A DNA stretch of 64,000 nt from an uncultured Armatimonadota bacterium (GCA_903910385.1 CAIVZM010000014.1:1-64000); one strand, 5' to 3'. Shown: positions 1 through 41,769, numbered from the stretch's first letter. Notes: generated by a model from the sequence alone, not told the origin. Numbers and translations: made by a program.

Positions 1-123
1 GCCGAAGCCACCGCCGCCGCCGCCGCCGAAGCCACCGCCGCCGCCACCACCGAAGCCACCGCCGCCGCCGCCGCCGAAGCCACCGCCGCCACCACCGAAG
101 CCACCGCCACCGCCGCCGCCACT
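1..123 (-). repeat. Gly/Phe-codon low-complexity tract
   Basis: The tract consists of GGC/GGT glycine codons broken at intervals of roughly 5-8 codons by a TTC phenylalanine codon, read on the minus strand in frame with the STN-domain protein. The interruptions occur at near-regular spacing, so this is a coding repeat prone to slippage, not an intergenic microsatellite. Confidence 0.85.
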
Positions 124-627
124 TGGTTGTCGTCCACGATGGGTGATAAAGACGATATTACCAAGAGCGCTGGCAAGGTCGATCGGGTCAATATAGATGA
201 GTGGAATTTGAGCGAATTCCTGATATTGGCGATTCGTGTTTGGCAGTTCGGGAGCCGGAGGGGGAGCAATGACATTATCATTGCTGAATCTTCGCGGCTC
301 GATAATATAAGTATTGTTCTCCTTCTTGTAGGTAAGGGGAACGCCAGAGGCACGCAGAATCAATCTCAGAGCCACCTCGAAAGGTTGATCCGTGATTTTC
401 AAGGTGGTGATAAACCCTCCCACCTGCGGGTCTATGATATAGTTGCTGACTTTCGCTGCATCAAAAATCTGTTTCAAAGCGGATTGAATCGGCGCATCGC
501 GCAATTCAATCGAAACCGGCGGTAGATCCTTCTCCTGCGCTTGGACTGCGCTCGGAGTTAGCATGACCACCGTACCCGCCATGACCATACAGGCCACGCC
601 AGCAAACAGGGAGAATGCTCTATTCAT
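1..627 (-). CDS. STN-domain (secretin N-terminal) pilus protein, 3' end outside window
   Basis: Reading from ATG at 627 gives at least 209 residues with no stop before the window edge. Residues 1-31 form a signal peptide ending at an AQA-like site. Residues about 36-110 look like an STN / secretin N0-type domain: a start like VSIELRDAPIQSALKQIF, then strands and helices ending in NNTYIIEPR. Residues from about 168 to the edge are almost pure Gly with periodic Phe. It is the last visible gene of a pilM-N-O-P-like operon, the place normally held by pilQ, so it may be an outer-membrane secretin or a periplasmic partner of one. The secretin barrel itself, if present, lies beyond the edge. Family placement is by motif; the PilQ assignment is inference. 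Confidence 0.75.
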   Translation of the reverse strand, partial: MNRAFSLFAGVACMVMAGTVVMLTPSAVQAQEKDLPPVSIELRDAPIQSALKQIFDAAKVSNYIIDPQVGGFITTLKITDQPFEVALRLILRASGVPLTYKKENNTYIIEPRRFSNDNVIAPPPAPELPNTNRQYQEFAQIPLIYIDPIDLASALGNIVFITHRGRQPSGGGGGGGFGGGGGGFGGGGGGGFGGGGGGGFGGGGGGGFG

Positions 628-729
628 CGTTCAGAATCCTGTTCTTCCTCAATCTGTCGGGCGGGTATTAACCCGCTCTAACAATACACGTTTCACAAAA
701 AGCGTCACTCGATAGGGAGAAGATCGAAA

Positions 730-1791
730 TTATTCTCCGTCATTGCCACCGCCACGACCACCGCCGAAACCACGACCTCCTCTGCCGCCGCCGCCCGGAA
801 AGCCGCCGCCGCCGGGGAACCCACCGCCGCCCGGGAATCCTCCCCCATTGAAGCCGCCGCCTTGCTGAGACAGTGCGGCGCCGGAGGCGCTCAAGGCGAC
901 TGGTACGGTACGACCATCCGGAGCTCGTAGCGTCAATTGGGTCGGCGTTATCGAAATCACCGTCAGTTTCGGAATACCCGGAATACCGCTCTCAACCAGT
1001 GATCCAGGCTTAACCACTTCAGTCAGACCGGAACCCGGACCGCCGGTTTCAAGAATTGCGGAAACCGCTGCACCATAGAGAATGCCAGCCACACGTCGTG
1101 GGACAAACGGCAGTGGACCAAATTCGATATTTGGGTCTGGATTCGGCTTGGGTTGGGGTGGTGACGGAATGCTTGCCAGACGCAACGGCGTAATGAAGTT
1201 ATACGCAGCAGGCTTCTGGTAAGCCGGGAATCGATAGGACACAAAGGGATCAGGACGCGCCGCCGTGGCGCGGACGCCACGTTGTATCGGAGCGAGATTC
1301 GCAAGAGGGTCGGCGCCGCCCGTCGCTGGAGGGGTGGTGGGCGCCGCTCCGCCAGGAGCGCCACCGCCCCCACCGGGGAAGCCACCGCCGCCCCCACCGC
1401 CGCCGGGGAAGCCACCGCCACCGCCGCCGGGTAATCCGCCCGGAGCGCCGCCTGAGCCACCCGGATAAGAAGGCGGGGCGCCTACAAAGGAGTTAGGCGG
1501 CAACGGCTTTGGCACAGGGTTCGTGACAGGTTGACCGGGCTTACCTGGCGCTCCGGGTTGAGCGGGTTTGCCGGGAGCTCCGGGTTGAGCAGGCGCTCCC
1601 GGAATTCCAGGAGCGCCTACTTGCGCCGTCATGACGCCTTGTCGAACCTGACCATCACTGTGCAGGGTGAATGCAAGCAATGCCCCTACGCCCAGCAGAC
1701 CGCCAACAGTGCTGCCAAGAACGATTTGTTTATAGTTCCGCATCTTGCGAAAATCCTCTGCATCCCTCGTTAGTAACTGTGAAGATGACAT
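730..1791 (-). CDS. PilP-like pilus assembly protein with collagen-like and Gly-rich segments
   Basis: This is a 353-aa protein with one membrane segment at about residues 23-42. A collagen-like stretch of GxP/GAPGKP triplets follows at about 59-88, then a Gly-rich stretch (about 111-148). A globular part at about 230-305 contains VAGILYGAAVSAILE, VVKPGSLVESG and TQLTLRAPDG; it resembles the PilP / secretin-docking fold of short strands in which a stored value, a location statement and an inner strand recur. The C-terminus is again Gly-rich (GGGGFPGGGG). The start ATG follows the pilO stop by 4 bases; an alternative ATG at 1743 has a better Shine-Dalgarno (AGAGGA). Its position after pilO supports a PilP role linking the inner-membrane complex to the outer-membrane pore. 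The PilP call rests on fold pattern and order, not strong motif identity. Confidence 0.65.
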   Translation of the reverse strand: MSSSQLLTRDAEDFRKMRNYKQIVLGSTVGGLLGVGALLAFTLHSDGQVRQGVMTAQVGAPGIPGAPAQPGAPGKPAQPGAPGKPGQPVTNPVPKPLPPNSFVGAPPSYPGGSGGAPGGLPGGGGGGFPGGGGGGGGFPGGGGGAPGGAAPTTPPATGGADPLANLAPIQRGVRATAARPDPFVSYRFPAYQKPAAYNFITPLRLASIPSPPQPKPNPDPNIEFGPLPFVPRRVAGILYGAAVSAILETGGPGSGLTEVVKPGSLVESGIPGIPKLTVISITPTQLTLRAPDGRTVPVALSASGAALSQQGGGFNGGGFPGGGGFPGGGGFPGGGGRGGRGFGGGRGGGNDGE

Positions 1792-1795
1792 TCAT

Positions 1796-2611
1796 CTAGT
1801 CCTCGGTCTTACCGCCCGCGGGTGCGGCTCCGCCCCCTGCTGCGGTAGGTCGTCCAGCGCTGAACGGTGCGCCGCCAGCGCCGCCGCCACCATAACCGCC
1901 GCCACCGCCGCCACCAGGGAAGCCGCCGCCGCCGCCAGGGAAACCGCCCCGAGCGCCGCCCACACCATTGCCACCTGCCGCCGATGGGAATTCCGGCCCA
2001 ATCGTGTCACTATGCGTAAAGACATAGCAGCTCAATGAGTAAGAGCCGACCAGACGGGGTGAATTGCCCTGAAGGGACAGATTATCCGCAACGACAAGAC
2101 GATCAAATTTGTTCCAACGTTCGACATGGTTCAGAACATCGTTGAAGCTTCCGACAACATCGATCTGACCGAAGTCGAATACGAATGCCTTACGAGCCAA
2201 CTGATTCGGGTCGGTCGGCGGTGCAGGCAATGCAATGCTTTCACGCGCCACTTGCACCTTTTTATCCGCATAGAGATAGTTGCGGACTTTCGGTCCCAGA
2301 GTGTTCAGTTGTTCCGCCCACAGTTGCGTCATCGCCGTGTAACGGTTGGTCGTATCGATATTCGGCATAAGCTGGCGATCATATACCCCCCACTTCGCCT
2401 TCGCTTCTGCGACTTCTTGCAAAGCCAGTTTCTTATCTTTTTCTTTAGCAGACCGCGTCAAGACTACTTGCTCATTATCCGAAAACTTTCTGTCCGCCTG
2501 CGCCAGCCGGTCTTGCGCCGGACGAATCAGCAGGAAGAAGATAAGCACTCCGGCAATCAGGCTCAAAACGATACTGATTATCCAGATTTGTAAAGGCGTT
2601 ATTTTTGCCAT
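1796..2611 (-). CDS. pilO: Type IV pilus inner-membrane protein PilO
   Basis: This 271-aa protein has one N-terminal membrane helix (about residues 8-29), then a long charged coiled-coil region (about 30-80) and a ferredoxin-like periplasmic domain (about 90-205), the standard PilO layout. The final 60 or so residues are an added tail rich in Gly (GGGGGFPGGGGGGGYGG), ending in GGKTED. PilO pairs with PilN and helps form the alignment complex that bridges the motor and the secretin. It lies 26 bases after pilN and 4 bases before the PilP-like gene, so it is surely cotranscribed with both. Ordinary PilO is about 200 residues; the excess is the Gly-rich tail. Confidence 0.87.
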   Translation of the reverse strand: MAKITPLQIWIISIVLSLIAGVLIFFLLIRPAQDRLAQADRKFSDNEQVVLTRSAKEKDKKLALQEVAEAKAKWGVYDRQLMPNIDTTNRYTAMTQLWAEQLNTLGPKVRNYLYADKKVQVARESIALPAPPTDPNQLARKAFVFDFGQIDVVGSFNDVLNHVERWNKFDRLVVADNLSLQGNSPRLVGSYSLSCYVFTHSDTIGPEFPSAAGGNGVGGARGGFPGGGGGFPGGGGGGGYGGGGAGGAPFSAGRPTAAGGGAAPAGGKTED

Positions 2612-2637
2612 AATTTGCGTTTATCCTGTAGTTCCTG

Positions 2638-3426
2638 TTACTCTTCACTACCGCCGCGCTTACCACCAGCAGGAGCCGCTGCTCCGCCAGGAGCGCCACC
2701 GCCGCCGCCATAACCGCCGCCACCGCCACCATAACCGCCACCACCGCCTCCACCGGGGAAGCCGCCACGACCGCCGCCTGCCCCACCACCACCGCTGATG
2801 CCGCCCGCTGCGATACTTGCTGGCAGCGGCGGAGTAATCACAGAACGTACGAGATTTGCTGTGACTTGAACAGGAAACCAGCCGCTCGTCTCCGGATTCG
2901 GCCCGGTAACCGGGACTCCGCCTGCCGGGAGCGCATTTTGCGGCCAACTGGGGATTCCCTGAATACTGACGGCCGTGATATCCGGGTTACCGAACATCGT
3001 AATATACAAACGTCCAACATCGGCTACCTTGCGAACGTAACCGTTGATCTGCAAGACATTGCCATTAACTGCCATCGAACCGTACTCAGCGTCACGAATC
3101 GTGTACTGAGCCGCATTTCGGAAAATCTTCTGCCGGATGGCATTGTGGAAACGAACCGCTTCCACATAATCCACTTTTTCTTTGATCGGAGCGACTTGAT
3201 CGCGAATGGTTTTCGTCTCCGCAACCAGTTGGTCAACAGCCTTTCGTTGTGTTTCCATGTCGTCCGCTTCCGTTTCACGAGCGACGACCTTTGGCATCAA
3301 GTACAAAAAGTGAAAGCCCAATGCGCCCGCCAGCACCGCCAGCAACAGCGCTAGCGCGCCAAGAATCGCCCAGTTTCGGCGCTTCCCCTCATTAATTGAG
3401 GCGGGGAGCAGGTTAATTCGTAACAT
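2638..3426 (-). CDS. pilN: Type IV pilus inner-membrane protein PilN
   Basis: This 262-aa protein begins MLRINLLP; the INLLP motif is the cytoplasmic peptide with which PilN binds the PilM groove. A membrane helix follows at about residues 20-42, then a coiled coil (about 48-85) and a small periplasmic ferredoxin-like domain up to about 205. The last 55 residues are Gly-rich (GGFPGGGGGGGYGGGGGGYG) and end GGKRGGSEE. Typical PilN has about 180-200 residues and no such tail. The gene lies between pilM and pilO on the same strand. The PilN identity is firm from the N-terminal motif, topology and order; the tail's function is unknown. Confidence 0.9.
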   Translation of the reverse strand: MLRINLLPASINEGKRRNWAILGALALLLAVLAGALGFHFLYLMPKVVARETEADDMETQRKAVDQLVAETKTIRDQVAPIKEKVDYVEAVRFHNAIRQKIFRNAAQYTIRDAEYGSMAVNGNVLQINGYVRKVADVGRLYITMFGNPDITAVSIQGIPSWPQNALPAGGVPVTGPNPETSGWFPVQVTANLVRSVITPPLPASIAAGGISGGGGAGGGRGGFPGGGGGGGYGGGGGGYGGGGGAPGGAAAPAGGKRGGSEE

Positions 3427-3595: not shown

Positions 3596-5080
3596 TCAAT
3601 CCTTCCCGATTACTGCATCTCGCACTGCAAGCCCCAACGCGACAGCGTATTCGGGTGAACCCCCCTGTGGTCGCCCCTGCTTGACAGGTACGCTCACATT
3701 GGCGAGTGGTTCCGCAACGGAGGAAGAAATACCCAGTTCGTATTCCATGTACTTATCGAGGTTACTGATCTTGGCGGAACCGCCGCACAGAATAATCTGG
3801 TCGATCAACTCATTGGGATACCTCGAACGGAAGTAATCCACCGACCGTCGCACCTCGACCGCGAACTCGCCCAGTACCGGCATCAGCGCGTCGAAAAGCT
3901 CCTTTCGACGGCGTTCACGCGGATCTTCGGGAGCGACAGCGGCAAGAGCAGTTTCGGACGCAGCCGAAGTCGTAACCACCGGTTGTTCAGTCGCAGCGCC
4001 TGCATTCGCGTAAGGATCGAACTCCGTCGCCGGTGTGGGAGTCGCTGGGATATCGAAAGGAGAACTTCCTGCCGGAATATCAAAGGGCGAACCGCTGGGA
4101 GAAGCGGGGATATCGAACGGCGATGCGCTTGCCGGAATATCAAAGGGCGAGGAACTCGCCGGGATATCGAACGGAGAACCTCCTGCAGGAGCGTCGAATC
4201 CGCCGAAGATGTCGTCGCTCGCAGGAGCGCCGCGACCGATCATATCCATCAGAATGACGGCGTCTTGCAACTTGTCGGCTTCCGCCGCTTCCATGCTGAT
4301 GCCCAGATGATCGGAGATCGCCCGTGTGAAGTTATCCCCTGCAATCGGGATTGTGCGTGGAAAACGCAAGACTCCGCTTTTGTAGACGCCGACATCGGTC
4401 ATCGAAGACCCAATATTCACAATGACGACATTTTTCTTCGCCAGTTCGGTTTTGCTCAAATCCAGTAAGGCGCGTCCTACGGCAAGCGGTTCAATATCAA
4501 CGGCGATCGGTTGCAGTCCTGCCGCCTGCAACGTCTGCAGGTGAGATGCGACCATGTCGTTACGGGCGACCGCCAGTAACACCTCCATTTGCGTCGGAGG
4601 CATATTCGGATCGAGCGGTTCGTCCGGTTCGATCGCGCTGTAGGACATCTCAATATCGCTGGCGGAGAAGGGAATATGACGCTCTACTTCATAGCGCATC
4701 ATGTCTTTCAGTTCTGTTGCTGACATCGGCGCGACCTCGATGACGCGTACAACAACGCCATCGGCTCCCGCCGCCGCAGAAACGGACTTATTCGTCCTTT
4801 GCCCTATCTTCTTCAGCAGAGCCTTGATTTCCACCGCAAGCCGTTTGGGATCGGAGATGATGCCGCTTTGTATCGTCCCGGCAGGCGTGGGAACCTGTCC
4901 ATAACCGGTCACTGCCAGGCCGGTTCCCGAACCCTTGACTTCAACAGCCTTAATGCTATGGGAACCAATATCAATGCCGACAAAAGACCCGCCGCTCGGT
5001 CGCGCCTTTGCGGCAGGTTTTACTTTCCCTGTATTGCTCGTTCCAGCAGTCTTATCCGCTTTCGCGCCGAGTCTCGCCAC
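3596..5080 (-). CDS. pilM: Type IV pilus actin-like ATPase PilM
   Basis: This 494-aa cytoplasmic protein uses a GTG start with GGAAGG just upstream. After a Pro/Lys/Ala-rich N-terminus, residues 33-50 give the phosphate-1 loop FVGIDIGSHSIKAVEV of the actin/FtsA fold. Residues 217-232 (NVVIVNIGSSMTDVGVY) form the phosphate-2 loop, and LCGGSAKISNL near 440 the adenosine motif. PilM docks PilN through its INLLP peptide and couples the cytoplasmic motor to PilNO. Between the two halves (about residues 275-390) sits a disordered insertion that includes five SPFDIPA repeats. Normal PilM is about 350-370 aa, so the added length is this insertion plus an N-terminal extension. It is the first gene of the pilMNOP-like operon, with a promoter at 5122-5151. 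Confidence 0.92.
   Translation of the reverse strand: MARLGAKADKTAGTSNTGKVKPAAKARPSGGSFVGIDIGSHSIKAVEVKGSGTGLAVTGYGQVPTPAGTIQSGIISDPKRLAVEIKALLKKIGQRTNKSVSAAAGADGVVVRVIEVAPMSATELKDMMRYEVERHIPFSASDIEMSYSAIEPDEPLDPNMPPTQMEVLLAVARNDMVASHLQTLQAAGLQPIAVDIEPLAVGRALLDLSKTELAKKNVVIVNIGSSMTDVGVYKSGVLRFPRTIPIAGDNFTRAISDHLGISMEAAEADKLQDAVILMDMIGRGAPASDDIFGGFDAPAGGSPFDIPASSSPFDIPASASPFDIPASPSGSPFDIPAGSSPFDIPATPTPATEFDPYANAGAATEQPVVTTSAASETALAAVAPEDPRERRRKELFDALMPVLGEFAVEVRRSVDYFRSRYPNELIDQIILCGGSAKISNLDKYMEYELGISSSVAEPLANVSVPVKQGRPQGGSPEYAVALGLAVRDAVIGKD
4040..4180 (-). repeat. Five SPFDIPA repeats inside pilM
   Basis: Residues 301-347 of PilM contain SPFDIPA five times, separated by 2-5 small residues (SS, SAS, SPSG, GSS). 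The DNA copies differ at third positions (for example gatatcgaa versus gaatatcaa on the plus strand), so the peptide repeat is kept while the DNA drifts. This suggests selection on the protein motif. Confidence 0.9.
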
Positions 5081-32534: not shown

Positions 32535-34220
32535 CTATTGCTTTTTGGGGGGAGCCGCCTCTTCGGTCAGTTTCACCGGGACAACGCCATTGGTAATACG
32601 TGGGGTGACGAAAACCACCAGTTCCGTCTTGACATTGCTTTTCGATTGCGAGCGGAATAAAGTTCCCAGTATGGGAATATCGCCCAGTAACGGAACTTTA
32701 CGATTGATAACCTGCGCCTGATCCAGCGTCAGACCTCCGATGACAATGGTTTCGCCATCGCGGACGCGCACTGTGGTATTGGCATTGCGCGTCGAGAGGA
32801 CCGGCAACCCGGTCAGCGGATCCTGCTCCGTGATGTTGGACACTTCCGGAGCGATCGTCGTCGTCACCTCACCATTGCCCCCGGTGAGCGGCGTCACCGC
32901 CAGTTTGACCCCAACGTCCACCGGTTGAATCCTTACCTGTGTCTGCCCGAACGAATTGTACTGCGTTTGAATAAAACGTTGGGCTCCGATAAAGATATTC
33001 GCGGACTTCCCATTGACTACCGCCATCTGCGGGCGGGCGCGTACCCGCGCTTTCCCTGTCTTTTCCAGTGCATTGAGAGTCAGGTTGAAGGATTGAGGAA
33101 GGACGCCCACCGTGTCATACGAAAACGACCCTGTGTTCGTGTTCGCGGTCGAAACGGACGTTGAACGCACATTTTTCAACAATAGCCCGAGGTCCCGATC
33201 CGCATTATCGGTGAATTCCACGATAATCGCCTCGATCAGAATCTGCGGGGACGGCAAATCGACCTTGTTCAAATCCTGACCGATCTTTGCCAGCATCTGT
33301 GATGGCGCGGAAACCACGACCGCATTCTGCTCCGGGTTCACCTTCACATACGAGTACAGAAAGTTCGGCAACAGACCGGAAGCCGTATCCGCTTTCAGGT
33401 TCTGCATGCGGTATGATTGCGTCCCCGAGACCCTATAGGTCGCCAGATCATTGGGCACGCCCTCGGAAAGGACAAAGAGCGACCCGACTCGCGATAACGC
33501 CAGCCCATTGGCGGTAGCGATAGATTGTACGGCGATCTCCGGCGCGATATTTCGCAGGTTTACCGTCACCTTGCGATCAACCGCGTCGTCCACCGCCCCA
33601 GTAATGCCTGTTTTCTCGGCTATCAACCCTACCAGCGCATGAATATCCGCTTTTACCGCCCGGACAGAAAGACGCCCATCTTTGAACGTGACTTCCGTCG
33701 AGGTGTCTGGTTTGTCAGACAGAGTCGCCGCCGCGCCCGCCTCTGCGGCGCGTTTCCCCTCTATCGTTCGGTCAGAGAGCACGGTGATCAATACTCCCTG
33801 ACGATCCGGCGTCGCCGAAATGCGCGAGTTCGCTTCGGTGAAGTTGTTGATGGTCAGGTTCAGACCGATACCATTGGCTGCCCCCTGAGGCGTCGTCAAT
33901 GCGATATGAGAGACCGGATAACGGTTGACATTGAAAAAATTCTTGCCCGTTCCGTTACGCGCCGCCGGAAACGATAGCATGATCGCCTTTTGCGATTCGC
34001 CGTAGTTGCGCCGGTAATCCAGAATGCCATCTGCGGCAATCGTGATCTGCACTCCATTGGAAAGCGGAGTCACTTTCACCGAATTGACCGTCGTGTAAGA
34101 CAGCGGAGCTTTCACGCTTCCGTCCGAAGGGACGAAGTCCTCCTGTCCCCACGCGCCTCCCGCCGAACATGACAATAACGCAAGGCAGACAAGCGCCGTA
34201 AGAGCGGAGATGATTTTCAT
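32535..34220 (-). CDS. Secretin-type protein 3 (AMIN-STN-secretin)
   Basis: This 561-aa protein has a signal peptide at 1-25 (ending GGAWGQ), an AMIN-like domain (about 40-150: VNSVKVTPLSNGVQITIAADG), a STN/N0-like domain (about 175-250: ALVGLIAEKTGITGAVDD, VTVNLRNIAPEIAVQSIA), an N1 segment, and a secretin core to residue 545. The core ends with GETIVIGGLTL, KVPLLGDIPILGTLF and TELVVFVTPRI, the canonical secretin signature. It would form an outer-membrane ring used by type IV pili or type II secretion. Its ATG overlaps the TGA of the preceding secretin gene (ATGA). Compared with PilQ (about 700 aa) it is compact. Confidence 0.85.
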   Translation of the reverse strand: MKIISALTALVCLALLSCSAGGAWGQEDFVPSDGSVKAPLSYTTVNSVKVTPLSNGVQITIAADGILDYRRNYGESQKAIMLSFPAARNGTGKNFFNVNRYPVSHIALTTPQGAANGIGLNLTINNFTEANSRISATPDRQGVLITVLSDRTIEGKRAAEAGAAATLSDKPDTSTEVTFKDGRLSVRAVKADIHALVGLIAEKTGITGAVDDAVDRKVTVNLRNIAPEIAVQSIATANGLALSRVGSLFVLSEGVPNDLATYRVSGTQSYRMQNLKADTASGLLPNFLYSYVKVNPEQNAVVVSAPSQMLAKIGQDLNKVDLPSPQILIEAIIVEFTDNADRDLGLLLKNVRSTSVSTANTNTGSFSYDTVGVLPQSFNLTLNALEKTGKARVRARPQMAVVNGKSANIFIGAQRFIQTQYNSFGQTQVRIQPVDVGVKLAVTPLTGGNGEVTTTIAPEVSNITEQDPLTGLPVLSTRNANTTVRVRDGETIVIGGLTLDQAQVINRKVPLLGDIPILGTLFRSQSKSNVKTELVVFVTPRITNGVVPVKLTEEAAPPKKQ

Positions 34221-36067
34221 TGTTTTGGCAGGCTTTCGTTACTCACTCGCGCTGTCACGAGCACCAGGAGAGAAGTGCGTCCTTTCGAGGAACGACGGGA
34301 AGATGTAAGGTCATTGAGCAAAGGAACCGGGCGAAATGGCGCAAAGTTTCGGCGCTCACCGAATTCCGACTCTGACTCCAGACCGCCGACCAGCACCGTG
34401 TCGCCAGGACGGACACGCACATAGGAACTGATCTCACGCGTCCCGATCACGGGCAGACCGGTTTCCGCTTCGATAGAGTCCACCGTCGAAAATTTCGGCT
34501 TCAGGTTCAAAAGAATGTCCGCATCGCCGCCACTTGTCGTCGGTTGTACAGATAAAGTAACCCCCACAGGCAAGGGCAAAATACTGATTTGCTGACTGCC
34601 GGAATAATCCGCGGTGAGAACCGGCAAGAACCGCGTCTGCCCCAAAAATAGCGTTGCCTGCTCCCCCGATAGCGCCGTGACCGAAGGACGCGCCGCCAGA
34701 CGCGCCCTGCCCTGCGTAATGAGAGCCTGCAAACGCGCCTGAATCGTCGCCTGCTGACCGGGCAAAAGATTGACGGTCACCGCGCCAGCGTCCGTATCGT
34801 AAGCGACCCGCCCCTGATTGACGACCCCGGAAAGTACATAAATCTGATCTTCTGGCATCTGAAACTCGTATGCCTGCGCCTCTACCGTCACCTGAGGACG
34901 CGGACGGTCGAGAAGCGAGACATCACGCTTCAGTCGCTCCAGCAAGGCGGGCGAGCCAGAAGCGATCAATGCATTGTTGTCCATATCCGCACGAAGCGAC
35001 GGTAACAAAAAGTCCGGAAACAGCAACCGCGCCCGCTCTGGAGACAGATTTTGCAACGGCAGACGTTCGGAAGGCAAGCCTGCGCCGCCTCGACCGACGG
35101 TAAATCCACCGCCTTGCTCCGGCGGCAAGGCGATCAGATTCAGTCCCAATCCACCGATCAACGCTTTCAGATTGGTCTTAGTATCTCTTTCCGGCAGAAA
35201 TGCGGTCACATCCGCTTCCGCAGCGTCCGGTTGTGACTGCAGGTTCACCTCAGCGATTCGTCCGATCTCGTTGAGCGCTTCAGCAAGCGGCGTGTGTAAG
35301 ATATCCGCCTTGAATCGTCCTGCACCGCCTGTGATCGCCAGTCGATGCTTCCAGCTTTCGGGAGGAGAACGGCGTATCCTTTCCGGATTACGGTATGCCT
35401 CCACCCGATCCGTTATCACGGTAATGATCACCGATCTTCGATCCGGTCCCACAACGATGCTTGCCTGCAACGGTTGCAGAACAGCGGGATAACCGGCGAA
35501 CGACCATCCGTAATAACCATCGAAACGCAACGTGAAATACGAGATACGAACCGGCACATAGAAGCGTAGTTCGACATCGATCCCTGCCTCGACCGGCGCC
35601 CCCGGAATCGGTGGCCCGAAGTTATCTTCCGAAAGCGAAAAAGCGAACGGGTCACGGCTCAAGGTCAGCGAAACCGCATCGAAAGGATACGCCCCCACTT
35701 CCACAAATGCCGGAATCCGGGATTTCGCTCCCGTAAAACGAAGCCGGAACTTCCGTTTGAGCAACGCTTCCTTGAAATCAAAATTGCTACCCCCCAGATC
35801 GGTCAACGTGACAAATTCTCGGGCGTCGATGTTTAACTTCACATCGCCATCGGTCTGGATGGTCACCCGAACGGCATTGGGAAGCACATCGGTCTTCACC
35901 CCGGTAATGTTGTAGAACGACTGCGCCAGTTGCGCGATTGCAGGTGAGGGCATCAGGCAAAAGAGAAAGACGATAAGGCAAAAGGCGAAAGCGCGCGGGA
36001 GATTATTCCGGCATACCATCGCTCTCTTACCCTTCCTCGTATTTCTTTCGTCCGTCATTACCCTCAC
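34217..36067 (-). CDS. Secretin-type protein 2, divergent core (AMIN-STN-secretin)
   Basis: This 616-aa protein starts at GTG 36067 overlapping the previous stop (GTGA); the ATG at 36058 is an alternative. The signal peptide ends about residue 46 (PSPAIAQ). An AMIN-like domain (ITGVKTDVLPNAVRVTIQTDG) follows, then a further beta-rich region, an STN-like region (NLKALIGGLGLNLIAL) and a secretin core. The core keeps GDTVLVGGLESE but the usual PLLGDIPxLGxLF motif is altered to PVPLLNDLTSSRRSS, and the end reads LLVLVTARV. This divergence suggests it may not form a normal gated pore and could instead be a partner subunit. It is translationally coupled to both neighbouring secretin genes. Confidence 0.8.
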   Translation of the reverse strand: MRVMTDERNTRKGKRAMVCRNNLPRAFAFCLIVFLFCLMPSPAIAQLAQSFYNITGVKTDVLPNAVRVTIQTDGDVKLNIDAREFVTLTDLGGSNFDFKEALLKRKFRLRFTGAKSRIPAFVEVGAYPFDAVSLTLSRDPFAFSLSEDNFGPPIPGAPVEAGIDVELRFYVPVRISYFTLRFDGYYGWSFAGYPAVLQPLQASIVVGPDRRSVIITVITDRVEAYRNPERIRRSPPESWKHRLAITGGAGRFKADILHTPLAEALNEIGRIAEVNLQSQPDAAEADVTAFLPERDTKTNLKALIGGLGLNLIALPPEQGGGFTVGRGGAGLPSERLPLQNLSPERARLLFPDFLLPSLRADMDNNALIASGSPALLERLKRDVSLLDRPRPQVTVEAQAYEFQMPEDQIYVLSGVVNQGRVAYDTDAGAVTVNLLPGQQATIQARLQALITQGRARLAARPSVTALSGEQATLFLGQTRFLPVLTADYSGSQQISILPLPVGVTLSVQPTTSGGDADILLNLKPKFSTVDSIEAETGLPVIGTREISSYVRVRPGDTVLVGGLESESEFGERRNFAPFRPVPLLNDLTSSRRSSKGRTSLLVLVTARVSNESLPKQ

Positions 36068-37536
36068 GGTTTGCTCCCGGTAATGGGGACATCACTTTTC
36101 GGCGCCTCGCCACGGGGCAAGCGCAGAGACGGTGGAAACTCCGGGTTAACAGCAGGCGGGGCGGGCGGAGCGGGCTTGTTGATATCGGAATTCAGGAATC
36201 GCGCTTTCAATGCGTTCTCCTCCGCTTCCGGCAGGTGACCGGTATTGGAAAGAATACGTGGCGTAATGAACAGCGCCAGTTCCGTCTCCGTCGTCTCGGT
36301 GTTTTTACTCTGAAAGAAAAGCGGTCCCAGAAAGGGAATGTCACCCAGAAGGGGGATTTTATTGCGGACGGAGCGCGACTCCTGCTGCGTTAACCCACCG
36401 ATGACGATGGTCTTTCCATCCAGAACGCGAACGGTGGTCGTTGCGGTGCGCGTGGATTTTTCCGGCAGTTTGGTAATCGGGTCAAGAGCGGAAAGCGTCG
36501 ATACTTCCGCATTCACATCGACCAGAATCTCTCCCTTACCGCCGGTATACGGCGTGATAGAGAGACGGACTCCCGCAGAGATATTATTGGTCGATCCGCC
36601 ATAACCTCCGGCGCTCGAATCGATGGGCGTAGCGATATAGCGTTGAAGACCCACGAAAATGCTTGCCGGACGACCGGATACCGTCGCAATACGCGGATTT
36701 GCGCGAACGCGCGCCTTCCCCTTCTGCACCAGAGCCGTCAGAGCGACGGAAAACTGCCGGGAGTTCGGTTGGAATCCGAGCCAGGAAACGATACCGCTGG
36801 CAGGATCGATAAAAGGTCCCTGTCCGCCATTGAGGTATTTTGTCTTTAACGCAAATTCATCCAGGCTGGTATCCGTCAGTTCCACCAGCAGCAAATCAAG
36901 AACGATCTGTGAAGCGGGAATATCGAATTGCGCGATATCGTCCCGGAACTTGGAAAGGACCTCAGTGGGAGCGGAAAGCACGAGCGCGTTCTGTTCCGCA
37001 TTGAACTTCACATAATCCTGCAAAAAGACCGGTAACAGGTTACGGGCATTCGAAGCAGTGACATATTTCGTGGGAATCGCGGCGATATCGGAGAGCAGAT
37101 ACGACGAGGGAGAACGCGGAATGCCTTCGGAGATCATCGTAATCCCCTCGACATCCGCAACCGAAAGACCATAGGCGGAGCAAATATCCGTGATTGCCTG
37201 TCGCGCCGGTCGGTCTTTCAAATTGATGGTGATTCGTCGCGACACCTGATCGTCCACCAGTAGCGGGAGATTGGTCTTGGAGGCGATGGCGGTAAAGAGT
37301 TCAGGAGCATCGACGGAAACCGCAAAAATCGAAAGTTTTTTATCATCCCCGGTGATACGGTAAGTTCCACGCGCCGGAAGGGGCGAAGCGGGGGTCTTCA
37401 CCGCTACCGTAGCGGGCGCCGCCGAGGACGGGTTCGGCGAAGGCGGAACATCCTGCGCTCTGCACAGGCAAGCAAGGCAAAGCGAAACCGCAACCGCAAC
37501 CGTGACACGAAAAGAGCCCCGAAAAAGAATAGGCAC
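36064..37536 (-). CDS. Secretin-type protein 1 (STN-secretin, no AMIN)
   Basis: The start is taken as GTG at 37536 because AGGAGGT lies 4-5 bases upstream; the frame is open to 37581 but has no better site. This gives a 490-aa protein whose signal peptide (PILFRGSFRVTVAVAVSLCL) ends near ACLCRAQD, possibly a lipobox-like context. An STN-like domain follows (ISVDAPELFTAIASKTNL, ITINLKDRPARQAITDICSAYGL). The secretin core ends GKTIVIGGLTQQ, KIPLLGDIPFLGPLFF and LALFITPRIL. Unlike the two downstream secretins it lacks an AMIN domain. It lies 80 bases after a methyltransferase gene and overlaps the next secretin by 4 bases. Confidence 0.85.
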   Translation of the reverse strand: MPILFRGSFRVTVAVAVSLCLACLCRAQDVPPSPNPSSAAPATVAVKTPASPLPARGTYRITGDDKKLSIFAVSVDAPELFTAIASKTNLPLLVDDQVSRRITINLKDRPARQAITDICSAYGLSVADVEGITMISEGIPRSPSSYLLSDIAAIPTKYVTASNARNLLPVFLQDYVKFNAEQNALVLSAPTEVLSKFRDDIAQFDIPASQIVLDLLLVELTDTSLDEFALKTKYLNGGQGPFIDPASGIVSWLGFQPNSRQFSVALTALVQKGKARVRANPRIATVSGRPASIFVGLQRYIATPIDSSAGGYGGSTNNISAGVRLSITPYTGGKGEILVDVNAEVSTLSALDPITKLPEKSTRTATTTVRVLDGKTIVIGGLTQQESRSVRNKIPLLGDIPFLGPLFFQSKNTETTETELALFITPRILSNTGHLPEAEENALKARFLNSDINKPAPPAPPAVNPEFPPSLRLPRGEAPKSDVPITGSKP

Positions 37537-37540
37537 AATG

Positions 37541-37547
37541 ACCTCCT
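37541..37547 (-). promoter_or_regulatory. Strong Shine-Dalgarno fixing the first secretin start
   Basis: AGGAGGT on the minus strand, followed by CATT and GTG at 37536-37534. It decides the start over the upstream ATG at 37581, which lacks such a site, and gives a normal signal peptide. Confidence 0.75.
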
Positions 37548-37616
37548 GCGCAAGAATCCCGCACAGTGAGACGTTCGTCACCAGCTAAACGTTACGGGAA
37601 GAACGAAAAGAATTTT

Positions 37617-38279
37617 TCATCCCTTGCGAGCGACGATATGAAAAGCGTGCCAGTGTTTGGGAGAACCATCAGCGACTGTGCCGTCGCGCTCTTCCTCCTC
37701 GAATTTCTCAATGATCAGCGAACTCAGTAAGGCTTTCGCTTCCGCCTGTGTGTAATGAAGGGTTCGCCCCCCGCCCGCCCATTCATCATGATCCCCGAAA
37801 AGTTGTCCGCAGAACCGACCTCCGGGAACCAGCGACGTGACGATTTGTTCCCACAACGACGGAAATACGGCTTTCGCGCAAAATGGCAGAGAATAAGAAG
37901 CGTTTATCAGGGTCGCCGGACGAAGCGTCATACTCTCGAATCCGACAACGTGCGTTTCCAGTTCCGTTCCGGCGGGAATATCGGAGCGCTCCCGCAATCG
38001 ACGGATCGCTTCCGGTTGAGCGTCCATCGCCAGAACGCTCCAGCCGCGTCGGAGCAGTTCCGCTGTATCGGGTCCATCGCCACAGCCCAGATCGAGCGCA
38101 AAACGCGAAACGGTAGGCGCAGGATCAGAATCGAAGCGGGCTAATGCATCCAGAAGCGTCGGGCGAGGAGGGGCTTGTTTACGAAGTTCGTAGTACTCCC
38201 GCCAGCGTTCCGCCTCAGCGTCCGGGGAGACAACGTCAGAGGTTTCAGATTTAAGCGAGTTAAAAGGCGTATCGTCCAT
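37617..38279 (-). CDS. Class I SAM-dependent methyltransferase (TehB-like)
   Basis: Start taken at ATG 38279 (220 aa); a longer frame opens at 38330 but would overlap lpxK by 71 bases. Motif I FALDLGCGDGPDTAELLRRG binds S-adenosylmethionine. Motif II is VLAMDAQPEAIRRLRER with the acidic residue at the second strand end. NASYSLPFCAKAVFPSLWEQIV and PGGRFCGQLFGDHDEW give the later motifs. The pattern of motif plus LPF and HTL-free C-terminus resembles TehB/tellurite-type and small-molecule methyltransferases. The substrate is unknown. It overlaps the end of lpxK by 20 bases, so it is probably cotranscribed with waaA-lpxK. Confidence 0.78.
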   Translation of the reverse strand: MDDTPFNSLKSETSDVVSPDAEAERWREYYELRKQAPPRPTLLDALARFDSDPAPTVSRFALDLGCGDGPDTAELLRRGWSVLAMDAQPEAIRRLRERSDIPAGTELETHVVGFESMTLRPATLINASYSLPFCAKAVFPSLWEQIVTSLVPGGRFCGQLFGDHDEWAGGGRTLHYTQAEAKALLSSLIIEKFEEEERDGTVADGSPKHWHAFHIVARKG

Positions 38280-39408
38280 CAGCAATGGACATAATGTTGT
38301 CGATCGCCTGGAAAAATCCTGCCTCATCATCCATCTTCATCCGGATACGCAGAGCGTACAACGGCTTTCCCCCGACAGGCCAGAGCGGCGCCGCTTTGAC
38401 CGCATCTTTCTCGGTAGTGATGACCACGGAAGCTGATTCCGTCTGTCGCGCCAGAGATTGCACATCCTCCGCCGTATAAGCGAAATGATCGCCAAAAGTG
38501 CGCTCTCCGACCACTGACACTCCCTGATCCCGCAAGACCTGTAAAAACGCCTCACCATCAGCGATACCCGAAAACGCGAACGCCGATGCGCCCCGTAGCG
38601 CTTCCAGAGGGGCGATGTTATTGTCAACATTTTCTGCCGGGTTGCCTCCGAGGCGTATCCAGTTGGTCGGAGCATGACGGGCGGTAAACGTCGGCGTTTG
38701 CGGCGCATACCGGGCGATCAGGGATAGCGAACGTTCCAATTCTTCCGGGGTAGCCCGATCCGCACGGGTCAACGCAATGATTCCCGCACGAGAAAGATGG
38801 GAAGGCGGTTCTCGTAGCAGACCTCGCGGCAATACATGACCGTTGTCGAACGGACGGCGGGCATCGAGCAGAATAATATTCAAATTCCGCGCCAGTTGCC
38901 AGTATTGCAGTGCGTCATCACAGAGGATAACTTCTGGCGCAAACCGCTCTACTGCCAGAGACCCGGAACGCCGTCTGTCACGCCCTACCACCACCGGGAC
39001 GCCCGGTAACAATTTTGCCAGCAAGACCGGTTCATCGCCCGCTTCCGCAGGAGAAAGTAAAATCTCTGCGCCATCGCTGACCACACGCGGCGTTTTACCG
39101 GATTCTCCGCTACCGCCGTGTCCCCGGGAGATCACGGCGACACGCTTCCCGGAATCCCGTATCCGCTCCGCGATCAGCGCTGTCATAGGCGTTTTACCAG
39201 CGCCTCCCGAAGTCAGGTTACCAATCACAATCACGGGAACCGGCAGTTCATACCGGCGTCGGATTCCCGTCCGGAATGGCGCCAGGTAGACTTCCAATCC
39301 CAGATGATGTAGCCAGGACAACGGGGTCAACGCGCCCCGTAGCAGGACGGCTACCGGACTTTTATCCGCTCCGCTCAAAACATCCTGAACGAACGTTCCC
39401 CTGTTCAC
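38260..39408 (-). CDS. lpxK: Tetraacyldisaccharide 4'-kinase LpxK
   Basis: This 382-aa protein phosphorylates the 4' position of the lipid A disaccharide at the inner membrane. The P-loop is GNLTSGGAGKTPMTALIAERI (GGAGKTP). Next come ISRGHGGSG, the DEP motif GDEPVLLAKLL, VVVGRDRRR, VILCDDALQYWQLARNLNIILLD (the DD(G/A)LQ motif) and LPRGLLREPPSHL. All are LpxK signatures; the family is usually 330-360 aa. The start overlaps the waaA stop (ATGA), so the two are coupled. Presence of LpxK and WaaA implies that the cell makes lipid A with Kdo. Confidence 0.93.
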   Translation of the reverse strand: MNRGTFVQDVLSGADKSPVAVLLRGALTPLSWLHHLGLEVYLAPFRTGIRRRYELPVPVIVIGNLTSGGAGKTPMTALIAERIRDSGKRVAVISRGHGGSGESGKTPRVVSDGAEILLSPAEAGDEPVLLAKLLPGVPVVVGRDRRRSGSLAVERFAPEVILCDDALQYWQLARNLNIILLDARRPFDNGHVLPRGLLREPPSHLSRAGIIALTRADRATPEELERSLSLIARYAPQTPTFTARHAPTNWIRLGGNPAENVDNNIAPLEALRGASAFAFSGIADGEAFLQVLRDQGVSVVGERTFGDHFAYTAEDVQSLARQTESASVVITTEKDAVKAAPLWPVGGKPLYALRIRMKMDDEAGFFQAIDNIMSIADGRYAF

Positions 39409-40712
39409 CTCGCACCGTCCGATTTTCCCGACAGTAATCGCGCCGCCTCATCGACGCAACGGACTGACACGCCCTGATTCCGCTCGATCAAATGCCGGGC
39501 TTTCTCAGATAAGCGGCTCTTTTCCTCCGGAGTAAGCGAGATCAATCGGATTACTTCGGAAGCCAGCATTCGGGCGTCACTCACTTCGAATGCTACTCCG
39601 TCCGCTTTCGACAGCGATGAGATATCCCGTTGATTGTTCATGTACGACCCGAAGACGACCGGGACGCCCTGTGCCAGAGGTTGGAAGACGCTTTGCCCCC
39701 CGAACGGCGCAAGAGAACCGCCGACAAAAGCGCAATCCGCGACGGCATACACGCGGGCGAGTTCGCCAAAGGTATCCAGCAGAAGGACTTCATCCGAAAT
39801 GGCTTCCGTCAGCAGAGAAGACCGGCGCCGCACCGTAAACCCTCGCTCGGTAAACGCCTTTGTCACCTCCTCGGCGCGTTCCAGATGGCGCGGCGCGATA
39901 ATAAGCGCCACACCGGGGATCCGTTCCCGCACCGCAGCCAGAGCCTCCGCAATAATTGCCTCTTCGCCGGGACGTGTCGAACCACAGACCCAGACGGGCG
40001 CATTTTGCGGAATCTTCAAATCCCTGCGGAGCGCCAGTCTTTCGTCGAGGGTCGGCATCGTCGCGGACTCATCGAATTTGGTATTGCCGGCATCACGAAT
40101 TTTTTCGGGGGAGACGCCCACAAGAGCGGCGCGACGAGCATCTTCGGCGGACTGCATCAGGAAAACATCCACCGCATCCAGACCCGGACGCGTAAAGAAA
40201 CCGCTTTTGCGACCACGCCGAAGCCCCTTATCAGAAATGCGCCCGTTCAAGACAGCGATCCGTGCGCCGCGCTTGTGGGCGCAGTTCAGAAAATTGGGCC
40301 ATATCTCCCATTCCATCAGGAGAACGATATCTGGACGCACGACCGACAACGCCCGGTTGACTGTCGAGGCGAAATCCAGCGGATAACCGGTCACATAATC
40401 CGCCGGAGGACATTGCTTCAGCGCAACTTCACGCCCGCCCGCCGTGGTCGTGGAAAGCAGGATCAGGGCGTCCGGCCAGCGCCGCCGTAGCTCCTTGAGC
40501 ACAGAGACCGCCGCCATCACTTCCCCCACGGAAACCGCATGCACCCAGATACGCAACCGTCGGGGGTCATTGGCGATAGCGTCGGAATAATCGCCCCACC
40601 GCTCCTGCCAGGAGGCTTCGCTTTCCTTGCCCCGTGACCGACGCCATACCATCAACAGATAAATCAACGGCGACAGTAATATCAGGAGCAAGTTATAAAC
40701 GAAAAGAGACAT
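39405..40712 (-). CDS. waaA: 3-deoxy-D-manno-octulosonic acid (Kdo) transferase WaaA
   Basis: The start is taken at ATG 40712 (435 aa), where homologs begin with a short membrane anchor (MSLFVYNLLLILLSPLIYLL); the frame is open a further 104 codons upstream but those residues do not look like WaaA. Key segments: QERWGDYS, WVHAVSVGEVMAAV, LSTTTAGGREVA, PLDFASTVNRALSVVRPD, LMEWEIWPNF, GNTKFDESAT, CGSTRPGEE, RHLERAEEV and FVGGSLAPFGGQSVFQPLA. These are the GT30 donor and acceptor motifs. It adds Kdo to lipid IVA at the inner membrane. It is divergent from nadC, with a 199-base gap. Confidence 0.93.
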   Translation of the reverse strand: MSLFVYNLLLILLSPLIYLLMVWRRSRGKESEASWQERWGDYSDAIANDPRRLRIWVHAVSVGEVMAAVSVLKELRRRWPDALILLSTTTAGGREVALKQCPPADYVTGYPLDFASTVNRALSVVRPDIVLLMEWEIWPNFLNCAHKRGARIAVLNGRISDKGLRRGRKSGFFTRPGLDAVDVFLMQSAEDARRAALVGVSPEKIRDAGNTKFDESATMPTLDERLALRRDLKIPQNAPVWVCGSTRPGEEAIIAEALAAVRERIPGVALIIAPRHLERAEEVTKAFTERGFTVRRRSSLLTEAISDEVLLLDTFGELARVYAVADCAFVGGSLAPFGGQSVFQPLAQGVPVVFGSYMNNQRDISSLSKADGVAFEVSDARMLASEVIRLISLTPEEKSRLSEKARHLIERNQGVSVRCVDEAARLLSGKSDGAR

Positions 40713-40879
40713 AAAACGCCAGTAACAATAACCCGGGCGAAAGGAAACGCCGCAAAATCGGCGCCCCTGCCCGTCACTCTGAAGAATGTTACCACGACCT
40801 CGAAGAGTGAATTTCGAGGAGGATTCGCCAAAAATCGCCAGAAAATGGCATAATGTACTGGCATCATAAAAATGTTGAC

Positions 40880-40896
40880 GCAATATGCGATATTGC
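40880..40896. promoter_or_regulatory. Palindrome upstream of nadC, possible operator
   Basis: GCAATAT-GCG-ATATTGC is a perfect 7-base inverted repeat with a 3-base centre, 15 bases before the nadC ATG and just after TTGACG. Its position between promoter region and ribosome site suits a repressor site. No regulator is identified here; the role is inference. Confidence 0.4.
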
Positions 40897-40911
40897 AAGA
40901 GAGGGTATTTC

Positions 40912-41769
40912 ATGGCGGATAATGTGAATGCGCCCCTGCCGGAAGCGTATGAACCGATTCTCAGAGCGGCGCTGACAGAAGATATCGGGACGGGTGATAT
41001 CACAAGCGAGTTGACCATTCCCACGGAAAAATCTGGTCATGCCTCAATGATAGCGAAAGCGGACGGCGTTATCGCCAGTCTCGCAATCGCCTGTCGGACG
41101 TTTACGCTGGTAGATGAAAGCGTTCATGTGACCCTTCTGGTCGGCGAAGGCGAACAGGTAAAGCCCGGAACTATGCTTGCGAATATCAACGGCCCGGCGC
41201 GCAGTCTGCTGGCGGCGGAACGAGTGGCGCTCAATCTGGTGCAACGCATGAGCGGAATCGCGACTCTCACCCGACGTTTCGTCAACGAGACTGTCGGAAC
41301 CTCCGCAAAAATCCTCGACACGAGAAAGACGACCCCCAATCTGCGCATTCTGGAAAAGTATGCGGTACAGGTCGGCGGCGGCATCAATCATCGCATGGGA
41401 CTGTATGACGCCATTCTCATCAAGGACAACCATATTGCGGCGGGCGGCGGCGTCACTGCCGTACTCCAGCGCGTAAAAACCGCTATGACCAATCCATTGC
41501 CCATCGAAATCGAGTGTAAAACTCTGGAAGAAGTGGACGAAGCGGTCGCAGTCGGCGTCGATATTATCCTGCTCGATAATATGGGATTTGAGCAAATGGG
41601 CGAAGCAGTGCGGAGAATCGCTTCCAGAGCGCAAACCGAAGCGTCCGGCGGCGTCAATTTGAACACCGTCGGCATCATCGCCAAACTGGGCGTCAACCGA
41701 ATCTCTGTGGGGGCATTGACCCACTCCGCCCCTGCTCTGGATATTTCGCTGGACCTCGATATCACGTGA
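40912..41769 (+). CDS. nadC: Nicotinate-nucleotide pyrophosphorylase NadC
   Basis: A 285-aa protein starting at ATG 40912 after GAGAGGG. It makes nicotinate mononucleotide from quinolinate and PRPP with loss of CO2 in NAD synthesis. Visible motifs: LTEDIGTGDITSELT, NLVQRMSGIATLTRRFV, ILDTRKTTPNLRILEKYAVQVGGG (the T-R-K-T/P segment), HRMGLYDAILIKDNHI, IEIECKTLEEVDEA, IILLDNMG and ASGGVNLNTVG plus ISVGALTHSAPALDISLD. Length and motifs are typical. Its stop overlaps the birA start (GTGA), so the pair is coupled. No nadA or nadB is nearby. Confidence 0.96.
   Translation: MADNVNAPLPEAYEPILRAALTEDIGTGDITSELTIPTEKSGHASMIAKADGVIASLAIACRTFTLVDESVHVTLLVGEGEQVKPGTMLANINGPARSLLAAERVALNLVQRMSGIATLTRRFVNETVGTSAKILDTRKTTPNLRILEKYAVQVGGGINHRMGLYDAILIKDNHIAAGGGVTAVLQRVKTAMTNPLPIEIECKTLEEVDEAVAVGVDIILLDNMGFEQMGEAVRRIASRAQTEASGGVNLNTVGIIAKLGVNRISVGALTHSAPALDISLDLDIT

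What the first reader, a model, noticed from the sequence alone, without database searches (positions are those of the whole stretch)
32535..37536. Three consecutive overlapping secretin genes
Three secretin-type genes overlap by 4 bases each and so must be made together. Two keep the PLLGDIPxLGxLF and GGL motifs; the middle one has lost the first. Normally one secretin gene serves one machine. A hetero-oligomeric or multi-gate pore is possible, and a fourth STN protein occurs at the left edge.
Basis: partly seen in the sequence, partly recalled or inferred. Interest (0 to 1): 0.7.

Follow-up and report, generated by a model that had tools for sequence, protein, structure and literature searches.

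The report
Conserved three-secretin operon in Armatimonadota
Three different genes for the ring protein that normally makes a gated outer-membrane pore sit back to back, and this exact trio has been inherited as one block across the bacterial phylum Armatimonadota, while its middle member has repeatedly lost the piece such proteins use to enter the membrane; this suggests a pore built from several kinds of subunit, where known secretin rings are built from one.

Summary
S1 (36064-37581), S2 (34217-36067) and S3 (32535-34220), all on the minus strand, are full-length secretins (Pfam E 4e-39, 8e-25, 1e-43). The S2/S3 overlap is firm (ATGA). The S1/S2 overlap (GTGA) depends on the start codon chosen. 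The arrangement is not local. S1-S2-S3 recurs in this order in at least 43 of 151 sampled Armatimonadota genomes, across 17 families. S1, S2 and S3 each form one clade (bootstrap 100/99/97), so one old triplication has been passed on as a block. In a scan of 84,980 species' genomes, 43 of 54 S1 loci carry the whole trio; ten are cut by contig ends and one is damaged. No pilus or type II secretion gene is conserved beside it. S1 and S3 always keep the membrane-contacting amphipathic loop (VPLLGDIPxLGxLF). S2 has lost it in 19 of 39 genomes, in several lineages, while staying under purifying selection. Best reading: the three act as one unit, probably a composite outer-membrane channel with S1 and S3 as inserting subunits and S2 as a non- or weakly inserting one. 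Co-assembly is inferred, not shown. The 'fourth STN protein' belongs to the separate type IV pilus operon, cut by the contig end.

The parts
36064..37581 (-). S1: 505-aa secretin; signal peptide, N0/STN, N1 (Secretin_N), secretin barrel; no AMIN-like module
   Evidence: ORF; PF00263 E 3.7e-39; S1 clade, bootstrap 100
34217..36067 (-). S2: 616-aa divergent secretin (600 aa if it starts at ATG 36019)
   Evidence: ORF; PF00263 E 8.1e-25, Secretin_N E 9.6e-7; AlphaFold pLDDT 78.6; Foldseek best hits all secretins; S2 clade, bootstrap 99
32535..34220 (-). S3: 561-aa secretin with an N-terminal AMIN-like module
   Evidence: ORF; PF00263 E 1.4e-43; S3 clade, bootstrap 97
36064..36067 (-). S1/S2 junction GTGA (start of S2 uncertain; alternative ATG at 36019)
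   Evidence: sequence; start candidates; alternative start
34217..34220 (-). S2/S3 junction ATGA, 4-base overlap
   Evidence: sequence; ATG at -4 is also common in relatives
36313..36360 (-). S1 amphipathic-loop motif KIPLLGDIPFLGPLFF, intact
32655..32699 (-). S3 amphipathic-loop motif KVPLLGDIPILGTLF, intact
34304..34348 (-). S2 degenerate counterpart NFAPFRPVPLLNDLT
   Evidence: matrix score -20.1; residues 571-590 fall in blocks of mean pLDDT 52-56 in the model
35414..35914 (-). S2 N-terminal beta module (residues about 52-218), AMIN-like, counterpart of the S3 N-terminal module
   Evidence: alignments; AlphaFold strands; only a sub-threshold Pfam AMIN match in an S3 ortholog, E 0.005
34244..34726 (-). 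S2 secretin domain PF00263 (residues 448-608)

Best explanation
S1, S2 and S3 are three ancient paralogous secretins that act as one unit. Shown: they are inherited as an ordered block; S1 and S3 keep every sequence hallmark of membrane-inserting secretins that was tested; S2 keeps the secretin fold and is under purifying selection, but has repeatedly lost the amphipathic helical loop. Inferred: they co-assemble into one composite outer-membrane channel in which S1 and S3 protomers make bilayer contact and the gate, and S2 is a non- or weakly inserting subunit, placed in or under the ring, whose AMIN-like module may tether the assembly to peptidoglycan. Also inferred: the channel serves a type-IV-filament (T2SS- or pilus-like) inner-membrane machine encoded elsewhere. 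The N0/N1 domains on all three are the usual docking parts. This genome has only two PilB/GspE-type assembly ATPases for five secretins, and the type IV pilus already has its own PilQ.
For: Fixed order S1-S2-S3 in at least 43 of 151 genomes, 17 families, confirmed in 37 fetched relatives, mostly with overlapping or closely spaced starts. Monophyly of each paralog. All but one of the S1 loci with enough downstream sequence carry S2 and S3. The trio is the only conserved synteny, with no pilus or T2SS genes adjacent in more than 90 loci apart from one damaged locus and one distant ATPase. In 38 genomes without the trio, no two secretins are adjacent. Distance matrices of the three genes correlate at r 0.88-0.91 (permutation maximum 0.32), and in G146 all three differ from other members of its family in the same direction, as if moved as a unit. 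S2 omega 0.08-0.38, higher than S1/S3 in every pair but below 1, also where the loop is lost. S2 loop scores are bimodal while every intact S1 and S3 is high. The loop is present in all structurally characterised secretins and is thought to make first bilayer contact (PMC6532946). AMIN domains bind peptidoglycan (PMC10653833). Five secretins against two assembly ATPases. Nine of 25 trio genomes have only two such ATPases, against 0 of 22 without the trio (Fisher p 0.002, not corrected for relatedness). Full-length and truncated PulD can form mixed multimers (PMC4604470).
Against: Conserved operons can encode separate rings. In about half the sampled genomes S2 keeps the loop and could form its own ring. 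S2 is relaxed along its whole length, not only at the loop, which fits any loosely constrained role. Distance correlation mostly reflects shared inheritance. The partner machine was not identified.
Confidence: 0.47

Rival explanations
1. Three separate homo-oligomeric secretin rings, co-expressed but each serving its own filament or secretion machine or cargo.
For: The solved secretin rings found here by sequence and fold search are recorded as rings of one secretin. The three are only 25-41% identical over the secretin region within this genome. Armatimonadota genomes carry many pseudopilins (79 PulG-like genes in Fimbriimonas, PMC4072686).
Against: No dedicated machine genes beside the trio. 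Only two assembly ATPases here for five secretins. Loop-less S2 in 19 of 39 genomes is a poor candidate for its own membrane ring. Genes for independent machines would be expected to scatter or be lost singly, which is not seen.
Confidence: 0.28
2. S2 is an accessory factor (assembly aid, adaptor or peptidoglycan anchor) evolved from a secretin; S1 and S3 form the channel or channels, and S2 is not a stable ring member.
For: Faster evolution and repeated loop loss of S2 with retained N-terminal modules; AMIN-like N-terminus as in peptidoglycan-binding PilQ (PMC10653833).
Against: S2 keeps the complete barrel and lip strands in the model and the lip in alignments even where the loop is gone, which a mere adaptor would not need.
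Confidence: 0.18
3. S2 is a decaying, non-functional paralog between two working secretins.
For: Long branches and motif loss.
Against: Open full-length frame in nearly every genome, omega 0.08-0.38 on 14 close pairs, never missing from an intact trio locus.
Confidence: 0.03

Closest known systems
Type II secretion secretin GspD (TIGR02517; E. coli GspD 5wq7, Aeromonas ExeD 6i1x)
   Same: N0, N1 and secretin barrel with GGL; S1 and S3 keep the amphipathic loop; best sequence and fold matches
   Different: Three paralogs in one operon; one N1-type domain where GspD has several N domains; all far below the GspD cut-off (140, 75, 170 versus 351 bits); no linked gspC-M genes
Type IV pilus secretin PilQ (TIGR02515)
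   Same: AMIN-like module plus N0/N1/secretin in S2 and S3 (AMIN is typical of polar PilQ); second-best family match
   Different: Below the cut-off (139, 69, 157 versus 284 bits); not in a pilMNOP operon; the organism has a separate PilQ at C39 followed by aro genes
Mixed PulD multimers (PMC4604470)
   Same: Shows that unlike secretin chains can enter one ring
   Different: An artificial mix of full-length and truncated forms of one protein, not natural paralogs
Filamentous-phage secretin pIV (7ofh)
   Same: Shares N1 and secretin barrel; highest target-normalised TM-score (0.64) to the S2 model
   Different: Single gene, phage-encoded; ring of one protein

Membership tests
Secretin superfamily (PF00263) | Secretin domain above the Pfam cut-off | tested here: met
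   134.5, 87.8, 148.8 bits against 27.5
Secretin superfamily (PF00263) | Secretin_N (N1-type) domain N-terminal to the barrel | tested here: met
   All three match at E below 1e-3; only S2 exceeds the model's own cut-off of 28.2 bits
Secretin superfamily (PF00263) | Amphipathic helical loop (VPxLGDIPxLGxLF) | tested here: inconclusive
   Met by S1 and S3; not met by the window S2 and by 18 other S2 orthologs
Secretin superfamily (PF00263) | Secretin fold | tested here: met
   S2 model matches GspD, InvG, PulD and PilQ, E to 7e-17, probability 1.0; full-length TM-scores are low (0.15-0.28), so domain arrangement differs or is unsure. The S3 model was low confidence and S1 was not modelled
Secretin superfamily (PF00263) | Ring of 12-16 identical subunits in the outer membrane | not testable with these tools
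   Needs biochemistry or cryo-EM
T2SS GspD (TIGR02517 equivalog) | Score above the equivalog cut-off of 351 bits | tested here: not met
   139.7, 75.4, 170.1 bits
T2SS GspD (TIGR02517 equivalog) | Linked gspE/F/G-K genes | tested here: not met
   None conserved beside the trio; the single exception, G116, has a T2SS with its own GspD next to a truncated S2
T4aP PilQ (TIGR02515 subfamily) | Score above the cut-off of 284 bits | tested here: not met
   139.4, 68.7, 156.6 bits
T4aP PilQ (TIGR02515 subfamily) | Position at the end of pilMNOP | tested here: not met
   That position is held by the C39 secretin and the STN protein, by comparison with G005

The most novel reading that the evidence does not exclude
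A natural, obligate hetero-oligomeric secretin: one outer-membrane ring or stacked double ring built from three dedicated paralogs, with one paralog that cannot insert by itself and shapes, plugs or anchors the pore.
Probability: 0.4. Interest if true: 0.85.

Novelty: new variant of a known kind. Interest (0 to 1): 0.7.

Why it matters
The secretin rings matched here in the Protein Data Bank are rings of one secretin. A phylum-wide, ancient operon of three distinct secretins, one of which repeatedly sheds the membrane-contact loop while staying under selection, points to division of labour inside a secretin channel. It also gives a natural experiment on what the highly conserved amphipathic loop is for, since it can be lost as long as two sister subunits keep it. 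The trio occurs in at least one genome assembled as a single contig (G014), in the order of Capsulimonas, a genus that to my knowledge has a cultured member, so the question may be testable. No paper describing tandem or hetero-oligomeric secretins turned up in the open-access library searched.

Tried and rejected
1) A dedicated machine next to the trio: neighbour clustering over 40 loci and tblastn with GspE, GspF, PilC and PilM over 94 loci found none conserved. 2) G116 (bin117), where S1 and a truncated S2 lie beside a T2SS operon: rejected as evidence, because the S2 is only 322 aa, it is the only such case, and that T2SS has its own GspD. 3) A tandem GspF pair (own C39) as the partner platform: present in genomes with and without the trio and missing from several with it, so not a specific partner. 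4) The left-edge STN protein as a fourth trio member: rejected. 5) S2 as a pseudogene: rejected by dN/dS. 6) First genome-collection scan with S2 alone: its patterns were too specific and found nothing. 7) Promoter and terminator scans: no more matches than in shuffled sequence. 8) The AlphaFold model of S3 was low confidence (pLDDT 69) and was not used. 9) Literature: searches for tandem, paralogous or heteromeric secretins gave nothing on point; earlier work notes T2SS in Armatimonadetes (PMC6668835) and four PulD-like genes in Fimbriimonas (PMC4072686).

Full report
OBSERVATION. The three genes are on the minus strand, in the order S1 (36064-37581), S2 (34217-36067), S3 (32535-34220). All three carry a full secretin domain by profile search, and all match Secretin_N. 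S1 and S3 hold KIPLLGDIPFLGPLF and KVPLLGDIPILGTLF; S2 holds NFAPFRPVPLLNDLT at the same place; all three keep GGL. The S2/S3 junction is ATGA. The S1/S2 junction can be GTGA, but ATG at 36019 gives S2 a more ordinary signal peptide, so the overlap there is not certain. A cotranscribed unit is likely but was not measured.

WHERE IT IS. The window is the start of contig C14 (79.7 kb) of a 4.47-Mb genome in 84 contigs. Related contigs carry Armatimonadota names (Capsulimonas, Abditibacterium, Chthonomonas, Zipacnadia, Hebobacteria). G018, in the same order as this genome, has a trio contig (C3, 11506 bases) of the same length as the Capsulimonas sp. RYN_270 record found in the named collection. 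Five secretins were found in the whole genome: the trio, one on C39 followed by aroC, aroK and aroB (aro names from sequence resemblance, not profile-tested), and an orphan on C76. The left edge of the window carries pilM (3596-5080), proteins in the places of pilN, pilO and pilP, and the start of an STN protein that ends at the contig end in a glycine repeat. In G005, of the same family, the order pilM ... pilP, STN protein (232 aa), PilQ (548 aa), aroK is contiguous. So the fourth STN protein and the C39 secretin are the type IV pilus alignment operon, and the trio is a separate thing.

HOW WIDESPREAD. A search with S2 over 151 genomes of the phylum gave at least 43 genomes, in 17 families, with two or three adjacent hits, plus several fragmentary cases (my count from the listed places, and the list was cut at weak E-values, so this is a lower bound). 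Forty relatives' loci were fetched: 37 or more hold three consecutive secretins in the same order and strand, mostly with start codons overlapping or within 60 bases of the previous stop. A scan of 84,980 species' genomes with an S1 profile gave 54 loci: 43 show S1-S2-S3 (two of them with S3 cut by the contig end), ten end before S2 or S3 can be seen, and one (L155) has a truncated S2. By title all are Armatimonadota or unnamed bacteria, apart from single MAGs labelled WS1 and Bacillota; the scan uses short peptide patterns, so absence elsewhere is not proven. In 38 well-sampled genomes without the trio, no two secretins are adjacent.

ONE TRIPLICATION. A tree of 144 secretin domains puts S1, S2 and S3 each on one branch, separate from other secretins. 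A careful tree of 53 gives bootstrap 100, 99 and 97. S2 rows have long branches, so details inside S2 are unsure, but its constant middle position supports its unity independently. Pairwise distances of S1, S2 and S3 among 35 genomes correlate at 0.88-0.91 (permuted maximum 0.32). G146 belongs to family f24, but all three of its genes are closest to those of f2/f6 and this genome, unlike the other f24 members, as expected if the block moved as a unit.

WHAT IS DIFFERENT ABOUT S2. Mean identity over the secretin region is 0.59 for S1, 0.56 for S3 and 0.31 for S2. On 14 close pairs S2 has the highest dN/dS every time, yet only 0.08-0.38. On a loop-motif matrix built only from non-trio secretins, S1 never falls below 23 and S3 never below 27 (leaving out one truncated S3), while S2 splits: 19 of 39 at or below about 0 and 20 at 12 to 48. 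Intact and lost forms are interleaved on the tree (five losses as drawn; three is a cautious minimum given the long branches). The relaxation is spread over all S2 domains, but the S2 model still has the complete barrel with lip strands and its best fold matches are all secretins. [quoted passage not shown] PMC10653833). S2 and S3 share an N-terminal AMIN-like module that S1 lacks (only a sub-threshold Pfam match).

NO RESIDENT MACHINE. Around the trio nothing else is conserved, and pilus or T2SS genes are not conserved next to it. This genome has two PilB/GspE-type ATPases (C33, C67) for five secretins. Nine of 25 trio genomes but none of 22 others have only two (Fisher p 0.002, uncorrected for relatedness). 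One of the two here is presumably the pilus PilB, so the trio most likely works with the other machine or shares one. This is inference. A tandem GspF pair on C39 is not a specific partner.

MECHANISM. Shown: three secretins, an ancient block, retained together; S2 selected but free to lose the loop. Inferred: the three act in one assembly, with S1 and S3 as the inserting subunits and S2 as a subunit that relies on them, possibly anchoring the ring to peptidoglycan. I give this 0.47. Separate rings get 0.28 and an accessory role for S2 outside the ring 0.18. The strongest argument for the first is that an S2 without the loop should be a poor maker of its own membrane ring, yet it is kept in every intact trio. 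The strongest argument against is the lack of any direct interaction evidence and the fact that S2 keeps the loop in about half the sampled genomes.

NOVELTY. The proteins are secretins, a known kind, but they fall far below the GspD and PilQ cut-offs and lie outside those operon types. I found no description of tandem or naturally hetero-oligomeric secretins in the library searched, which holds open-access papers only. I class it as a new variant of a known kind.

Noticed in passing
window 1-780 (minus strand) and L006 (C39) 3-1898: The type IV pilus alignment operon is split by the contig ends inside glycine-rich repeats: C14 ends in an STN protein and C39 begins just before PilQ-aroC-aroK-aroB. 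A same-family genome shows the contiguous order.
   Followed up: yes
window 5299-30518 (minus strand): Pilin-like cluster downstream of the trio with unusually large members: 360, 699, 803, 1099, 1764 and 3471 aa. The first and third pass the N-methylation model; the 1764-aa protein has DUF4159 and a weak PQQ match; the 3471-aa one matches no Pfam or NCBIfam family.
   Followed up: partly
window 730-3426 (minus strand): The proteins in the places of PilN, PilO and PilP end in long glycine-rich tails (GGGG/FPGGGG repeats), and the adjacent STN protein has such a stretch too.
   Followed up: no
L121 (own contig C39) 5652-8660 (minus strand): Two different GspF/PilC-type platform proteins encoded next to each other with a small unknown protein between; a similar tandem pair occurs in other Armatimonadota, with or without the trio.
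   Followed up: partly
L007 6807-8018 (own contig C76): Orphan 403-aa secretin without an obvious N0 domain, directly after what looks like a mechanosensitive-channel / cyclic-nucleotide-binding fusion gene.
   Followed up: no
window 37617-41024 (minus strand): kdtA, lpxK and a methyltransferase gene lie directly upstream of S1 on the same strand (lipid A pathway genes, so an LPS outer membrane is likely); this neighbourhood is not conserved in relatives.
   Followed up: partly
L182 5172-19756 (G116): S1 and a 322-aa S2 fragment sit beside a T2SS operon with its own GspD; this may be a deletion or an assembly join in this single-contig MAG.
   Followed up: partly
L185 13657-15200 (G014): Two nearly identical neighbouring genes for ATPase-like proteins (MKKARPxQGPFIxEVLLNRDRVPSF...), a recent tandem duplication.
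   Followed up: no
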